A DNA stretch of 64,000 nucleotides, from positions 62,001-126,000 of the forward strand of contig NZ_JAUQOP010000009.1 of assembly GCF_030580855.1 (NCBI RefSeq), in the 5' to 3' direction. The stretch comes from Pseudomonas citrullilanati. GTDB lineage: Bacteria; Pseudomonadota; Gammaproteobacteria; Pseudomonadales; Pseudomonadaceae. A program made the translations under genes and the position numbers. The notes beneath the pieces were generated by a model. The model did not search any database and was not told the DNA's origin. It was given only the letters and a program-made list of their open reading frames with translations. Each line of letters opens with the position of its first letter. Position 1 is the first letter of the stretch. Of the stretch, positions 15,943 through 24,306 are shown one piece after another.

Positions 15943-17685
15943 TTATTTACGAGCCGCTTCCCACGATTTCAACAGTTCGCTATAGCTCACCGTCTCACCT
16001 TTAGGCTTCTCGTTCGCCAGCTTCGGCTTCGGTGCGCCCGGTTGGTCGAACCAGTATTGCGCGTCGCGCTCGGGGTTCATTTTCGGGGCGCAGGTGGCCT
16101 GGGCCTTGGAACGTTCCAGGCGCGTCATGATCGCGTCCTGGTCCTTGGCCAAACCGTCGAGGGCCTGTTGCGGGGTCTTCTCGCCACTGGCCGCTTCGGC
16201 GATGTGGCTCCACCACAGTTGCGCCAGGCGTGGATAGTCCGGCACGTTGGTCCCGGTCGGGGTCCATTGCACGCGGGCCGGGCTGCGGTAGAACTCCACC
16301 AGGCCACCGAGTTTCGGCGCCAGGTCGGTCATCGCCTGGGAGTTGATGTCCGACTCACGAATCGGCGTCAGGCCGACGATGGTCTTCTTCAACGACACGG
16401 TTTTCGACGTCACGAACTGCGCGTAGAGCCAGGCAGCGAGGCGCTGTTTCTCAGGCGTGGACTTCATGAAGGTCCAGGAACCCACGTCCTGATAACCCAG
16501 CTTCATGCCCTCTTCCCAGTACGGACCGCGCGGCGAAGGTGCCATGCGCCACTTCGGCGTGCCGTCCGCATTGACCACCGGCAAGCCCGGCTTGGTCATG
16601 TCGGCGGTGAACGCGGTGTACCAGAAGATCTGCTGGGCGATGTTGCCCTGGGATGGCACCGGGCCGGACTCGGAGAAGGTCATGCCCGCCGCTTCCGGCG
16701 GCGCGTATTTCTTCAGCCAGTCCACGTACTTGGTGGTCGCGAACACAGCGGCCGGGCCGTTGGTGTCGCCCCCACGGGTCACGCTGGAACCCACCGGATG
16801 GCAGTCCTCGACACGGATGCCCCACTCGTCCACCGGTAAACCGTTGGGCAAGCCCTTGTCGCCGCCCCCGGCCATGGAGAACCAGGCATCGGTGAAGCGC
16901 CAGCCCAGGGACGGGTCTTTCTTGCCGTAGTCCATGTGGCCGTAGACGCGCTTGCCGTCGATTTCCTTGACGTCCTCGCTGAAGAACTTGGCGATGTCTT
17001 CATAGGCCGACCAGTTCACCGGTACGCCCAGCTCGTAGCCGTACTTCTCCTTGAACTTGGCCTTCAGGTCCGCACGCTCGAACCAGTCGGCGCGGAACCA
17101 GTACAGGTTGGCGAATTGCTGGTCGGGCAACTGGTAGAGCTTGCCGTCCGGCGCGGTGGTGAAGGACGTCCCGATGAAGTCCTTGAGGTCCAGGGTCGGC
17201 GAGGTGAAGTCCTTGCCTTCGTTGGCCATCAGGTCGGTGATCGATTCGGTCTTGCCATAGCGAAAGTGCGTGCCGATCAGGTCCGAGTCGTTGACCCAGC
17301 CGTCGTAGATGTTCTTGTCCGACTGCATCTGGGTCTGCAGTTTTTCCACCACGTCGCCTTCCTGCAGCAAATCGTGGGTGATCTGGATCCCGGTGATCTC
17401 GGTGAAAGCCTTGGCCAGCACCTTGGATTCGTACTGGTGGGTGGTCAGGGTTTCCGACACCACGTTGATCTTCATGCCGCGAAACGGCTCGGCGGCCTTG
17501 GTGAACCACTTGAGCTCTTCGAGCTGCTGCTCCGTCGTCAGGGTGGACGGCTTGAATTCACTGCCGACCCATTTTTTCGCGGCGTCTTCATAGGCGTCGG
17601 CCCAGGCCACAGCGCTCAACCCGCTGAGCGCCAGTGCGGCTGCCAATGAAACGCTATGTCGCAGCTTATTGTTTTTATCGAACAT
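15943..17685 (-). CDS. Periplasmic substrate-binding protein of a glycerol-type ABC transporter (GlpV-like)
   Basis: A 580-residue protein with a Sec signal peptide (KLRHSVSLAAALALSGLSAVAWA, residues 7-29, cleavage near AWA-DA). It is larger than most sugar-binding proteins, as in the GlpV group. Conserved features include an aromatic-rich binding region (QQFANLYWFRADWF, about 178-191) and a C-terminal DUF-like extension with paired Cys. AGGAGG precedes the ATG by five bases. It is the last gene of an operon with two ATPases, two permeases and a DUF2160 protein, the order of the rhizobial glycerol transporter glpSTPQUV. Glycerol is therefore the best substrate guess; another polyol is possible. 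Confidence 0.82.
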   Translation of the reverse strand: MFDKNNKLRHSVSLAAALALSGLSAVAWADAYEDAAKKWVGSEFKPSTLTTEQQLEELKWFTKAAEPFRGMKINVVSETLTTHQYESKVLAKAFTEITGIQITHDLLQEGDVVEKLQTQMQSDKNIYDGWVNDSDLIGTHFRYGKTESITDLMANEGKDFTSPTLDLKDFIGTSFTTAPDGKLYQLPDQQFANLYWFRADWFERADLKAKFKEKYGYELGVPVNWSAYEDIAKFFSEDVKEIDGKRVYGHMDYGKKDPSLGWRFTDAWFSMAGGGDKGLPNGLPVDEWGIRVEDCHPVGSSVTRGGDTNGPAAVFATTKYVDWLKKYAPPEAAGMTFSESGPVPSQGNIAQQIFWYTAFTADMTKPGLPVVNADGTPKWRMAPSPRGPYWEEGMKLGYQDVGSWTFMKSTPEKQRLAAWLYAQFVTSKTVSLKKTIVGLTPIRESDINSQAMTDLAPKLGGLVEFYRSPARVQWTPTGTNVPDYPRLAQLWWSHIAEAASGEKTPQQALDGLAKDQDAIMTRLERSKAQATCAPKMNPERDAQYWFDQPGAPKPKLANEKPKGETVSYSELLKSWEAARK

Positions 17686-17726
17686 AGAGACCTCCTGTTT
17701 GGGTTTAAGAGCCTTCGAACTTTCGA

Positions 17727-18002
17727 CTAGCCCCACCGCATCACTGCCAACAGCCACACCAGAGACAGCGCGAACGCTATCCAGATGCTCCAGTCGGTCA
17801 CGCCAATCACCAGCAGATGCAGGTAGGCGCTCCCGAGAAGACCGATAAACAACCGATCGCCACGGGTCGTGGCAATCGGCAGGAAACCACGCCGGGGAAT
17901 ACTCGGCGAACGCAGTTCCCAAGTGGTCATGCCTGCCAGCAGCAAGGCGATGACCCCAAAAAAAGCCGCCGTCGGGACGGTCCAATTCATCCATTCCATC
18001 AT
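17727..18002 (-). CDS. DUF2160 small membrane protein (GlpU-like)
   Basis: A 91-residue protein with three hydrophobic segments (about residues 9-27, 49-67 and 70-88) and the conserved ELRSPSIPRRGFLP loop and GDRLF motif of DUF2160. Two adjacent ATGs follow GAGGAG; the second (90 residues) has the better spacing. It lies between permease and binding-protein genes of the glycerol-type ABC operon, where a DUF2160 gene is usual. It probably belongs to the transporter complex, though its job is not known. Confidence 0.83.
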   Translation of the reverse strand: MMEWMNWTVPTAAFFGVIALLLAGMTTWELRSPSIPRRGFLPIATTRGDRLFIGLLGSAYLHLLVIGVTDWSIWIAFALSLVWLLAVMRWG

Positions 18003-18009
18003 CGACTCC

Positions 18010-18810
<801 letters not shown>

Positions 18811-18820
18811 CGTGCGGGCC

Positions 18821-19683
<863 letters not shown>

Positions 19684-19687
<4 letters not shown>

Positions 19688-20793
19688 GGCTGCACCTCGC
19701 TCAACGGTTCCAGCAGGTATTCATCGGCATAGACCATCAGCCACTGGGCCGGAAAACTGATGTACGCGGTGCCTTCCGGCACTGGCTTGTCTTCGGCCAG
19801 GCGCACCTTCAGCGGCGCGCCATCGAGGTTGAGGGTCAGGATCTTGTAGGTGCCCAGGTCCTCGACGTGGACCACGTCGGCTCGCATCGCGTCGTCGTAG
19901 GGGCCGTCCCAGACATGCACGAACTCAGGACGAATACCGACCTTCAGGGTCTTGCCCTGGGCCTGGGCAACGCGCTGCTGCAGGGTTTCGGACAGGGGCA
20001 AGTGGGTCGAGCCGAAGCCGACGCCACCGGGCTGCGCCGTGACGTCGATGAGGTTCATCCCCGGGCTGCCGATGAAATAGCCAACGAAGGTGTGGCTCGG
20101 GCGCTCGAACAGGTCGCGGGGCGTGCCGAACTGTACGATCTGGCCGCCGTACATCACGGCGATCTTGTCGGCGAAGGTGGACGCTTCCAACTGGTCGTGG
20201 GTGACGTAGACCATGGTGATGTTGAACTGCTCGTGGATCTGCTTGAGCTTGCGCCGCAGCTTCCATTTCAGGTGCGGGTCGATCACCGTCAGCGGTTCGT
20301 CGAAGAGGATCGCCGAGACGTCGTCGCGCACCAGGCCGCGGCCCATGGAGACTTTCTGCTTCTCGTCGGCGGTGAGGTTGCGGGCCTTCTTGTCCAGCAG
20401 GTTCTGCAGGTCGAGGACCTCGGCGATCTCCTGCACCTTGGTGTGGATCCTCGCCTCGGCCAGGCCTTGGTTGCGCAGCGGGAACGCCAGGTTGTCGAAC
20501 ACCGTCATGGTGTCGTAGACCACCGGGAACTGGAACACCTGGGCAATGTTGCGTTTCTCCGGGCTCAGCTCGTTGACGACCTGGCTGTCGAACAGCACCT
20601 GCCCCTCGGAAGGGCTGAGCAGGCCGGAAATGATGTTGAGCAAGGTGGACTTGCCACAGCCCGAAGGCCCGAGCAAGGCGTAGGCGCCGCCCTGTTCCCA
20701 GATGTGGTTCATCTCGCGGATCGCGTAGTCTTCGGGGCTCGCCGGGGTGCTGGTGTAACTGTGGGCGAGGTTCTGCAAACGTATTTCGGCCAT
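19684..20793 (-). CDS. ABC transporter ATPase with degenerate signature motif (GlpT-like)
   Basis: A 369-residue MalK/UgpC-type ATPase: Walker A GPSGCGKST (42-50), Q-loop FQF (about 87-89), Walker B ILFDE (162-166), H-loop His199 (VTHD), and a C-terminal OB-type regulatory domain from about 240. The signature motif is not LSGGQ but LTADEKQK (140-147). The paired ATPase encoded upstream has a normal signature but lacks the switch histidine. It energises uptake with the two permeases. The start overlaps the stop of the upstream ATPase gene by one base. Confidence 0.86.
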
Positions 20794-21887
20794 CAGGCAA
20801 CCCTCGCAATACGCAGGCCCGGGGCCTGGACCAGTTTGCCCTGGGCATCGAAGACAAACAGTTTATGGGTCGGGATGTAGATGCGGATCGGCGCATCCAC
20901 GTCGTATTCGTGGACGCCGGGCAAGTGCAGCACCAGCAGGAAATGTTCGTTGCGCACATGCAGGAACGTTTCCGAACCGCTGATCTCGGCCACCTCGACG
21001 GTCACCGCCAGTTCCAGGTCGTCGTCGTTGCTCGGCACCAGGGAAATATGGCTGGGGCGCACGCCAAAACGGAACTCGCCCTCGCCCACCGGCCGCAGGT
21101 CGACGTTCAGCGGGAAATGCACGAAATTGGCGAAGCTCACCTCGTTGCCGGCGATACGACCGGGCATGAGGTTGATCGGTGGTTCGGAAAACAGCTCGGC
21201 GGCCAGCACGGTCTGCGGCTGGTGATACACCGAGGACGACTTGCCGCTCTGGATCACCCGCCCTTCATGGAGGATGGTGGTGGTCCCGCCCAGGGCCAAG
21301 GCCTCGTTGGGCTCCGTGGTGGCGTAGACGGCGATGGTGTGCCGGGCCTGGAACAATTCGCGCATTTCCTGGCGCAGTTCCTCACGCAGCTTGTAGTCCA
21401 GGTTCACCAGCGGCTCGTCGAACAGAATCAGTTCGGCGTCCTTGACCAGCGCCCGGGCCATGGCCGTGCGTTGCTGCTGGCCACCGGACAACTCCAGCGG
21501 ATGACGCTTCAGGAACTTCTCGATGCGCAACATCCTGGCGGTGGCCAGCACCTTGTCCTGGACGACGTCGTTGGACACACCGGCCTGGCGCAGTGGCGAG
21601 GCGATGTTTTCGAAAACGGTCATGGTCGGGTAGTTGATGAACTGCTGGTAGACCATCGACACGTTGCGCAGCCGCACCGGCTTGTTCGTGACGTCGACGC
21701 CGTTCATCAGGACGCGGCCGCTGTCGGGTTTGTCCAGCCCGGCCATCAGGCGCATGAGGCTGGTCTTGCCGGACAAGGTGCGGCCCAGCAACACGTTGAA
21801 GGATCCGGGTTCGAAACTCAGGTTGGCATCGTCGATCCAGGTCTGGCCTTCGACGGTGCGACAGATGTGCTCAAGCTGTAGTGACAT
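20793..21887 (-). CDS. ABC transporter ATPase lacking the H-loop histidine (GlpS-like)
   Basis: A 364-residue MalK-type ATPase and first gene of the operon. Walker A is GRTLSGKTS (35-43), Q-loop YQQ (80-82), signature LSGGQQQR (133-140), Walker B LILFDE (153-158). The switch region reads ATTEPNEA, so the usual His is Thr191. A C-terminal regulatory domain follows from about 235. It lies 46 bases downstream of a strong sigma-54 promoter. With the second ATPase it should form an asymmetric heterodimer with one canonical and one degenerate ATP site. Confidence 0.86.
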   Translation of the reverse strand: MSLQLEHICRTVEGQTWIDDANLSFEPGSFNVLLGRTLSGKTSLMRLMAGLDKPDSGRVLMNGVDVTNKPVRLRNVSMVYQQFINYPTMTVFENIASPLRQAGVSNDVVQDKVLATARMLRIEKFLKRHPLELSGGQQQRTAMARALVKDAELILFDEPLVNLDYKLREELRQEMRELFQARHTIAVYATTEPNEALALGGTTTILHEGRVIQSGKSSSVYHQPQTVLAAELFSEPPINLMPGRIAGNEVSFANFVHFPLNVDLRPVGEGEFRFGVRPSHISLVPSNDDDLELAVTVEVAEISGSETFLHVRNEHFLLVLHLPGVHEYDVDAPIRIYIPTHKLFVFDAQGKLVQAPGLRIARVA

Positions 21888-21932
21888 GGCTCGGCCTTTT
21901 TATTATTTGGAGTCAAGCGACCGAAGCGTCAA

Positions 21933-21949
21933 AGCGAAAGCCGTGCCAG
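21933..21949 (-). promoter_or_regulatory. Sigma-54 promoter of the ABC operon
   Basis: On the minus strand this reads CTGGCACGGCTTTCGCT, which fits YTGGCACGrNNNTTGCW except for one base in the -12 element. The GG and GC dinucleotides have the required spacing. Start of transcription would fall about 35 bases before the first ATPase ATG. The gene on the other side encodes a sigma-54 activator. Confidence 0.82.
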
Positions 21950-22012
21950 AAATTGCAAGCCCTTGAAGCAGCGCGCTTTTTGAATAATCCGGCAGGAAAA
22001 TGCGTTCGTTGA

Positions 22013-22096
22013 TGAACACAAGTGAACAGTCAGGACTGAACAATTGAACAATCGGCCGGTTGACAATGAACAATTCTGAACAACACTGAATGAACG
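22013..22096. promoter_or_regulatory. TGAACA repeat array, probable activator-binding (UAS) region
   Basis: TGAACA occurs at 22013, 22023, 22037, 22045, 22067 and 22077, with TGAATG/TGAACG at 22087/22091. Most spacings are 10 or 22 bases, i.e. whole helical turns. The array lies about 65-160 bases upstream of the sigma-54 promoter, the usual enhancer distance, and next to the regulator gene. Confidence 0.6.
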
Positions 22097-22122
22097 TTTC
22101 CGGCTGGCCTGGCCATCCCCCC

Positions 22123-22211
22123 TGTGGGAGCGAGCTTGCTCGCGATAGCGGTGGATCGGTTGCATTGATGTGACTGACACACCGCTATCGCGAGCAGGCT
22201 CGCTCCCACAA
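22123..22211. repeat. REP pair (REPIN)
   Basis: Inverted copies TGTGGGAGCGAGCTTGCTCG and CGCGAGCAGGCTCGCTCCCA flank a spacer that also pairs partly (GATAGCGGTG / CACCGCTATC). It sits between the TGAACA array and the regulator gene. Confidence 0.9.
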
Positions 22212-22310
22212 GGGGCTGGTGTATTAAGTGCCATTCAGGCCTGCCCCAGCACAAGGAGTCTGTGCGAAACTCACCACCACAATAAAAAACAGCTCCTGCG
22301 AGAGTGCCCC

Positions 22311-24161
<1,851 letters not shown>

Positions 24162-24187
24162 TGCGACAGGACGGTCAAGGACAAAAC

Positions 24188-24280
24188 GGTAGGAGCGAGC
24201 CTGCTCGCGAAAACGCTGGATCAGCCAACATCGATGTTGAATGACGCACCGCTTTCGCGAGCAGGCTCGCTCCCACGAGG
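24188..24280. repeat. REP pair (REPIN)
   Basis: AGGAGCGAGCCTGCTCGCGA and its inverted partner TCGCGAGCAGGCTCGCTCCC flank about 45 bases. It separates the regulator gene from the convergent CigR-like gene. Confidence 0.88.
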
Positions 24281-24306
24281 ATTCGCTTGACCAGACGGCC
24301 ATCGGC

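What the first reader, a model, noticed from the sequence alone, without database searches (positions are those of the whole stretch)
21888..22310. Phased TGAACA array between a sigma-54 promoter and its divergent activator gene
Seen in sequence: six TGAACA copies plus near matches in about 84 bases, mostly 10 or 22 bases apart, upstream of a near-consensus sigma-54 promoter. Known: AcoR-type activators bind enhancer sites upstream of such promoters. Direct-repeat arrays rather than a pair of palindromes would be an unusual enhancer layout.
Basis: partly seen in the sequence, partly recalled or inferred. Interest (0 to 1): 0.52.

Follow-up and report, generated by a model that had tools for sequence, protein, structure and literature searches.

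The report
Helically phased TGAACA enhancer array
A run of six short identical DNA words between an uptake-transporter operon and its regulator gene is conserved across much of the bacterial genus Pseudomonas, and when evolution changes its distance to the operon's promoter it usually does so by whole turns of the DNA helix, which marks it as the regulator's likely landing site for switching the operon on.

Summary
Six exact TGAACA copies lie at 22013-22082 (start spacing 10, 14, 8, 22, 10), between a near-consensus sigma-54 promoter (21933-21948, minus strand) of an ABC transporter operon and a divergent sigma-54 activator gene (22311-24161). All 138 Pseudomonas regions that could be read hold four or more copies; 65 keep the exact spacing. 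The right half of the array occurs once per genome in 108 of 199 genomes, all with the regulator. Orientation is nearly uniform (738 TGAACA, 28 TGTTCA).

New here: helical phase. Of 23 path-disjoint species pairs differing in promoter-to-array distance, 20 differ by whole turns (chance 0.29); two control distances give 10 of 48 and 2 of 13. In 80 further species, 80 fit a prediction written beforehand. A conserved TTGACW-N16-[AG]ACACT inside the array is probably the regulator's own promoter. IHF-like sites lie in 80 of 136 promoter-array gaps.

Best reading: a direct-repeat enhancer for the divergent DhaR/AcoR-like activator, working through a short loop. Binding is inferred; substrate and inducer are unknown. 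Against it: the probable P. putida counterpart is still induced 6- to 8-fold in an rpoN mutant. New variant of a known kind.

The parts
22311..24161 (+). Divergent sigma-54 activator gene (616 aa): DhaR-like N-terminus, AAA+ domain with GAFTGA, Fis-type HTH
   Evidence: Sigma54_activat E 1.4e-66, HTH_8 E 7.7e-10; residues 13-243 match DhaR 4lrx E 2.3e-7
20793..21887 (-). First operon gene, ABC transporter ATPase
19684..20793 (-). Second ATPase gene
18821..19687 (-). Permease gene
18010..18810 (-). Permease gene
17727..18029 (-). Small membrane protein, DUF2160
   Evidence: E 9.7e-38
15943..17694 (-). Solute-binding protein gene
   Evidence: SBP_bac_8 E 1.5e-9; the start codon is my choice within a longer open frame
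21933..21948 (-). Sigma-54 promoter TGGCACG-N4-TCGCT of the operon; T of the -24 box at 21948
   Evidence: candidate within 130 nt of the ATPase start scores 9-12 of 12 in 137 of 138 orthologous regions; L093 has one only at 165 nt
21956..21968 (.). Degenerate IHF-like site (2 mismatches here); sites with 0-1 mismatch in 80 of 136 orthologous gaps, 50 of the 80 at this same offset from -24
22005..22007 (-). Conserved TTC (core of an inverted half-site), 10 bp left of S1 counted half-site to half-site
   Evidence: 72-78% per base among 112 regions
22013..22018 (+). TGAACA copy S1
22023..22028 (+). TGAACA copy S2
22037..22042 (+). TGAACA copy S3
22045..22050 (+). TGAACA copy S4
22060..22065 (+). 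TTGACA, probable -35 box of the regulator gene's sigma-70 promoter
   Evidence: TTGAC 97-99% per base in 112 regions anchored on S3-S4
22067..22072 (+). TGAACA copy S5, inside the probable sigma-70 promoter
22077..22082 (+). TGAACA copy S6, overlaps the probable -10 box by one base
22082..22087 (+). AACACT, probable -10 box (16-bp spacer)
   Evidence: exact NACACT kept in 19 of 27 regions whose S6 is not exact
22091..22096 (+). TGAACG, weakly conserved seventh copy
   Evidence: 50-63% per base

Best explanation
The array is the enhancer of the divergently encoded sigma-54 activator. Several activator subunits bind same-orientation TGAACA half-sites that lie 65 to 134 bp upstream of the -24 box in the window. 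The bound activator forms its AAA+ ring and, through a short DNA loop (in many species probably helped by IHF), contacts sigma-54 polymerase at the promoter of the ABC transporter operon. Because the loop is short, the array must keep its rotational position, so evolution mostly tolerates spacing changes of one or two whole helical turns. The two right-hand copies lie within the regulator's own probable sigma-70 promoter, so the same binding probably limits regulator synthesis. Shown: the array, its conservation, its link to regulator and operon, the phase. Inferred: binding, ring assembly, looping, IHF, sigma-54 dependence, autoregulation, inducer.
For: All 138 orthologous regions with a divergent ATPase gene carry four or more TGAACA between the genes; 65 contain the exact 10-14-8-22-10 series. 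TTGAC-N2-TGAACA-N4-TGAACA is found once in each of 108 of 199 genomes, all among the 140 with the regulator, none among the 59 without; 106 of the 108 lie in the intergenic regions I read, the other two on contigs that break there. Of ten orthologues outside the genus, 9 have three or more TGAACA or TGTTCA between the genes. Thirty less related regulators (30-41% identity) have no TGAACA in 450 bp upstream. Phase: 22 of 25 inferred spacing changes of 4 bp or more between -24 and TTGAC lie within 1.5 bp of a multiple of 10.7 (chance 0.29, p 1e-9; 23 of 25 with 10.5), controls 9 of 70 and 4 of 15; path-disjoint pairs 20 of 23 versus 10 of 48 and 2 of 13; 80 of 80 new species in phase (prediction). 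IHF-like sites in 80 of 136 gaps versus 5.3 in shuffles.
Against: No binding data. In P. putida, PP_2260-2263 (same gene order by name; sequence not read here) rise 9.8- to 39.9-fold under nitrogen limitation in wild type but still 6.3- to 8.0-fold in an rpoN mutant (PMC7801951, passages); the urt genes that the paper assigns to NtrB/NtrC also still rise there, so the mutant data do not separate the cases, but they do not show sigma-54 dependence. In the first set 122 of 137 regions, not all, are within 1.5 bp of the common phase; eight of the 15 others share one distance, 125. Three of 25 changes (7, 8 and 9 bp) are out of phase. The window's own IHF-like site has two mismatches; sites with 0-1 mismatch are found in 0 of 11 regions of the 85-88 gap class and 7 of 16 of the 75-78 class. 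Species are related and tree support is moderate (93 of 134 nodes at 0.8 or more). Outside the genus spacing differs and orientation is mixed.
Confidence: 0.82

Rival explanations
1. The copies form conventional palindromic dimer sites; TGAACA and TGTTCA differ only in the middle two bases, so a 10-bp direct pair is a degenerate TGTTCA-N4-TGAACA dyad. (A rival about subunit order, not about the enhancer itself.)
For: A conserved TTC lies left of S1 as an inverted half-site; several species have exact TGTTCA there; relatives outside the genus mix both orientations.
Against: In 137 regions the array segments hold 738 TGAACA and 28 TGTTCA, and the middle AA of S2 is 83% and 99% conserved, so orientation seems selected.
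Confidence: 0.3
2. The operon is not, or not only, sigma-54-dependent: a second, RpoN-independent promoter carries the induction, and the array serves that promoter or another protein.
For: PP_2260-2263 are still induced 6.3- to 8.0-fold in a P. putida rpoN mutant (PMC7801951, passages).
Against: A sigma-54 box scoring 9-12 of 12 is kept in 137 of 138 regions and the array keeps phase with it; in the same table genes assigned to NtrB/NtrC also still rise in the rpoN mutant. Orthology of the P. putida operon is inferred from names.
Confidence: 0.1
3. The array is mainly an operator for autoregulation over the regulator's own sigma-70 promoter.
For: TTGACW-N16-[AG]ACACT brackets S5 and S6 and is mostly kept where S6 is not exact.
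Against: S1 to S4 lie 5' of the -35 box and keep phase with the sigma-54 promoter, while the distance to the regulator start is free (88 distinct values in 137 regions).
Confidence: 0.07
4. Whole-turn spacing changes are a by-product of slippage or recombination between copies, not selection for phase.
For: S2 and S4 are 22 bp apart, and one group of species has lost 22 bp there.
Against: The gap between -24 and S1 holds no copies, yet 9 of 11 changes there are whole turns at 10.7 bp (10 of 11 at 10.5), 8 of 10 path-disjoint pairs; 11-bp losses inside the array match no pair of copies in the common layout.
Confidence: 0.07
5. A different DNA-binding protein, such as a global regulator, uses the array.
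For: Not excluded by sequence alone.
Against: The right-half pattern occurs once per genome and only in regulator-bearing genomes.
Confidence: 0.04

Closest known systems
GcsR enhancer of the glycine cleavage operon, Pseudomonas aeruginosa (PMC4894688, abstract and passages)
   Same: Sigma-54 activator gene next to its operon; three tandem sites upstream of the sigma-54 promoter, discussed there as sites for three dimers that form a hexamer
   Different: Each GcsR site is an 18-bp element with two palindromic arms; here the units are same-orientation hexamers at 8, 10, 14 and 22 bp, the last two within a probable sigma-70 promoter
XylR/DmpR upstream activating sequences (recalled, no call)
   Same: Regulator promoter overlapping the enhancer and IHF-aided looping; S3-S4 with flanks resembles the recalled palindrome of that family
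   Different: Those sites are palindromes, usually two; not compared here by any tool
NtrC activation loops (review PMC7408454, passages)
   Same: A system with two NtrC sites is described as face-of-the-helix dependent
   Different: Here the dependence is read from natural variation across a genus, not from reporter data
GlpSTPQUV glycerol ABC transporter of Rhizobium leguminosarum (as described in PMC7912956, passages)
   Same: Resembling six-gene set in that paper: periplasmic protein, small membrane protein, two permeases, two ATPases
   Different: There control is by the GlpR repressor beside glpD and glpK; here a divergent sigma-54 activator; substrate not tested

Membership tests
Sigma-54 activator (bacterial enhancer-binding protein) | AAA+ sigma-54 interaction domain with GAFTGA | tested here: met
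   PF00158 E 1.4e-66; GAFTGA read in the translation
Sigma-54 activator (bacterial enhancer-binding protein) | C-terminal Fis-type HTH | tested here: met
   PF02954 E 7.7e-10, residues 584-613
Sigma-54 activator (bacterial enhancer-binding protein) | Sigma-54 promoter at the target operon | tested here: met
   Score 9-12 of 12 within 130 nt of the ATPase start in 137 of 138 regions
Sigma-54 activator (bacterial enhancer-binding protein) | Binding to the enhancer and sigma-54-dependent activation | not testable with these tools
   Needs footprint and mutants; published rpoN-mutant data on the probable P. putida counterpart are unclear
DhaR (E. coli dihydroxyacetone kinase operon regulator) | NCBIfam equivalog cut-off NF008485 | tested here: not met
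   264.9 bits, cut-off 551
DhaR (E. coli dihydroxyacetone kinase operon regulator) | N-terminal sensor region similarity | tested here: met
   Residues 13-243 to 4lrx, E 2.3e-7
AcoR (acetoin regulator) | AcoR-specific sequence model | not tested
   No AcoR model appeared among the 25 of 26 NCBIfam rows shown
Palindromic-site enhancer (GcsR type) | Sites are inverted repeats | tested here: not met
   738 TGAACA versus 28 TGTTCA in 137 array segments; one inverted half-site core remains at the left end
GlpSTPQUV-type ABC transporter | Two ATPases, two permeases, DUF2160 protein, binding protein in one operon | tested here: met
   (gene order and domains; co-transcription not tested)
GlpSTPQUV-type ABC transporter | Glycerol uptake | not testable with these tools
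   No substrate data; comparison with GlpV not made

The most novel reading that the evidence does not exclude
Each TGAACA holds one activator subunit in head-to-tail order, so that six phased direct half-sites template one hexameric ring on DNA, instead of three palindromes holding three dimers. The genus then contains a natural series of promoters in which the whole ring has been moved along the DNA by whole helical turns.
Probability: 0.22. Interest if true: 0.75.

Novelty: new variant of a known kind. Interest (0 to 1): 0.52.

Why it matters
Sigma-54 enhancers are usually described as two or three palindromic sites (recalled), and helical-phase dependence is usually studied with engineered spacers (recalled). 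Here one regulator-promoter pair, found in 140 of 199 Pseudomonas genomes searched, offers many natural spacing changes with built-in controls (the two freely varying distances beside it), so loop geometry and subunit order can be tested directly. It also gives a specific motif for an uncharacterised regulator, with one site per genome for the right-half pattern.

Tried and rejected
Rejected: chance repeat; general repeat element (right-half pattern once per genome); a wider regulon in the own genome at these spacings (no second chained cluster; other spacings not searched). The minus-strand ORF 21929-22234 over the array was taken as spurious without a test. The hairpin 22118-22215 is a separate REP-like element. 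IHF as a universal part: supported in many species, weak in the window and in long-gap species, so kept as probable only. Face alignment of the six copies alone is marginal against random placement (0.048) and is not used as main evidence. Literature searches showed no description of this array, but the lists were capped (20 of 269 papers shown, 12 of 164) and only open-licence papers are held, so absence from print is not claimed.

Dropped rows and choices: L009 and L030 end at contig edges, so 138 of 140 regions were read. L093 was left out of distance counts (no promoter candidate within 130 bases of the ATPase start), leaving 137; for L088 the equal-scoring candidate nearer the ATPase gene was used. 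In 23 of 137 the left landmark TTC-N5-TGAACA was not found, leaving 114 for the split distances. One region with a short gap was left out of the IHF count (136). The 10.7-bp period was chosen after seeing the clusters; 10.5 gives the same result. The 80 held-out regions were picked by an exact right-half match from the capped list; in the first set regions with exact S6 are in phase in 100 of 110 and the others in 22 of 27. One search printed some loci in the wrong orientation and was redone. After checking, confidence in the best explanation was lowered from 0.88 to 0.82 because of the rpoN-mutant data seen.

Full report
Observation. The intergenic region 21888-22310 separates a minus-strand operon from a plus-strand regulator gene. 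It holds six exact TGAACA copies at 22013, 22023, 22037, 22045, 22067 and 22077. TGAACA-N4-TGAACA is found twice in the 5.84-Mb genome, both here, with no match for the reversed control. Pairs with 2 to 8 bases between copies are found 26 times genome-wide; 4 are here and chained, the other 22 are single.

Genes. The regulator (616 aa) has the sigma-54 interaction domain and a Fis-type HTH, the GAFTGA motif, and an N-terminus related to E. coli DhaR (4lrx, residues 13-243, E 2.3e-7). None of the 25 NCBIfam rows shown (of 26) reached its cut-off. The operon encodes two ATPases, two permeases, a DUF2160 protein and a solute-binding protein, a composition like that described for glycerol ABC transporters (PMC7912956, passages). 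Glycerol as substrate is not tested.

Conservation. Of 199 Pseudomonas genomes searched, 140 have the regulator at E 1e-150 or better. Upstream DNA was taken for all 140; two end at contig edges, and in the other 138 the ATPase gene is divergent. All 138 have four or more TGAACA between the genes (27 have 4, 36 have 5, 68 have 6, 7 have more); within the array segment itself one region (L096) has 3. Sixty-five contain the exact 10-14-8-22-10 series. An alignment of 112 regions anchored on a single S3-S4 pair shows slots at -24, -14, 0, 8, 30 and 40, a conserved inverted TTC at -32, TTGAC at 23-27 (97-99% per base) and ACACT at 46-50 (87-98%). S3 and S4 are 100% there by construction. The other 26 regions lack a unique S3-S4 pair: 24 have none and 2 have two; 17 regions show the shortened 10-22-10 or 10-23-10 form. 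In 137 regions the array segments hold 738 TGAACA and 28 TGTTCA; the rest of the DNA up to the regulator start (15,281 bp) holds 2 and 9.

Link to the regulator. TTGAC-N2-TGAACA-N4-TGAACA matches once in each of 108 of 199 genomes, all among the 140 with the regulator and none among the 59 without; the reversed control is 0. One hundred and six of these lie in the regions I read; the other two, in G035 and G167, lie on other contigs than the regulator, whose contigs break there. In a draw of 398 genomes, 219 match. Outside the genus, 10 genomes of a 194-genome order-level draw have an orthologue. Nine of these 10 have the divergent ATPase gene and three or more TGAACA or TGTTCA between the genes; the tenth (L157) shows neither in the DNA held. 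Orientation there is mixed and the spacing differs. In the named-genome set, L163-L165 (Pseudomonas) carry the array, L167 (Natronospirillum, 50% identity) has seven copies, six of them TGTTCA, and L166 (Psychromonas, 53%) has none. Thirty less related regulators (30-41% identity, L168-L200 without three that have little upstream DNA) have no TGAACA in 450 bp upstream; five have one TGTTCA. For some of these the match starts inside the gene, so part of the 450 bp is coding.

Helical phase. A sigma-54 candidate within 130 nt of the ATPase start scores 9 to 12 of 12 in 137 of 138 regions. In these 137 the distance from the -24 T to TTGAC is 89-91 (28), 101-102 (27), 112-113 (38), 120-127 (28), 132-135 (15), with one at 78. 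Taking 112 as reference and 10.7 as period, 122 of 137 lie within 1.5 bp of phase; of the 15 others eight lie at 125. On a FastTree of the ATPase gene, 25 inferred changes of 4 bp or more occur; 22 lie within 1.5 bp of a multiple of 10.7 (chance 0.29, p 1e-9; with 10.5, 23 of 25, p 1.5e-9; with 11.0, 18 of 25). Controls: TTGAC to regulator start 9 of 70; operon start to -24, 4 of 15. Split: -24 to S1 9 of 11; S1 to TTGAC 13 of 14. Path-disjoint pairs: 20 of 23, against 10 of 48 and 2 of 13. A prediction was written, then 80 regions from new genomes were fetched out of the capped list: 80 of 80 are in phase, and only 1 has an array identical to an earlier one. These 80 are related species chosen by an exact right-half match, so they confirm the classes but are not 80 independent events, and the group at 125 is not sampled in them.

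IHF. An IHF-like site with at most one mismatch lies in 80 of 136 gaps, against 5.3 on average and at most 11 in 50 shuffles; 50 of the 80 start 8 bp from the -24 T, 45 of these in the 65-bp gap class. Related sequences are counted singly, so the excess is partly shared ancestry. The window's own site has two mismatches; the 85-88 gap class has none with 0-1 mismatch in 11 regions.

Regulator promoter. TTGACA (111) or TTGACT (26) with a 16-bp spacer to AACACT (97), GACACT (16) or a close form brackets S5-S6 in 137 regions; TTGAC served as the landmark there, so its own constancy is taken instead. In 27 of 137 regions S6 is not exact; 19 of these keep NACACT exactly. Of the 110 with exact S6, 94 do. 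This fits a sigma-70 promoter for the regulator and so autoregulation, by inference.

Published expression. In P. putida, PP_2260-2263, which the paper assigns to PP_2259, rise under nitrogen limitation 9.75- to 39.87-fold in wild type, 4.18- to 7.93-fold in a relA/spoT mutant and 6.29- to 8.01-fold in an rpoN mutant; PP_2259 itself does not change significantly (PMC7801951, passages including Table 2). Induction left in the rpoN mutant counts against simple sigma-54 dependence. In the same table urtA, assigned to NtrB/NtrC, rises 11.12-fold in the rpoN mutant, so the mutant does not discriminate well. I did not read the KT2440 sequence, so the orthology is inferred from gene names and order.

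Mechanism and status. Shown: array, conservation, co-occurrence with regulator and operon, direct orientation, phase. Inferred: the regulator binds the copies, assembles there and activates sigma-54 polymerase by a short loop; and it limits its own synthesis.

Novelty. Tandem enhancers are known (GcsR, three 18-bp palindromic sites, PMC4894688, passages), and so is face-of-helix dependence (PMC7408454, passages). The direct-repeat layout, its overlap with a probable sigma-70 promoter, and phase read from natural variation make this a new variant of a known kind. The searches listed under Tried and rejected showed no description of it, within capped lists of an open-licence library.

Noticed in passing
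22118-22215: REP-like imperfect hairpin (48-nt arms, 85% complementary) between the array and the regulator gene; a similar element lies at about 24180-24283 after the regulator gene (read by eye). Such insertions could explain the freely varying array-to-regulator distance.
   Followed up: partly
21897-21908 (-): Crc/Hfq-type CA motif (AANAANAA) just before the first operon gene; within 40 nt of the start in 126 of 138 orthologous regions, against 1 of 360 control windows on the same strand and 73 of 360 on the other. PMC12533007 (passages) mentions a CA motif for PP_2264.
   Followed up: partly
22280-22292 (+): An A-rich stretch before the regulator gene may be a second CA-type motif; the 73 of 360 plus-strand control windows with AANAANAA lie between the array and the regulator start.
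   Followed up: no
L167 upstream of the match: Natronospirillum orthologue has the array mostly as TGTTCA (six TGTTCA, one TGAACA), nearly uniform but flipped relative to Pseudomonas.
   Followed up: no
L097, L104-L108, L110-L113, L120, L123, L128: Thirteen regions have an additional TGAACA 9 bp after S4 (spacing 9 and 13 replacing 22).
   Followed up: no
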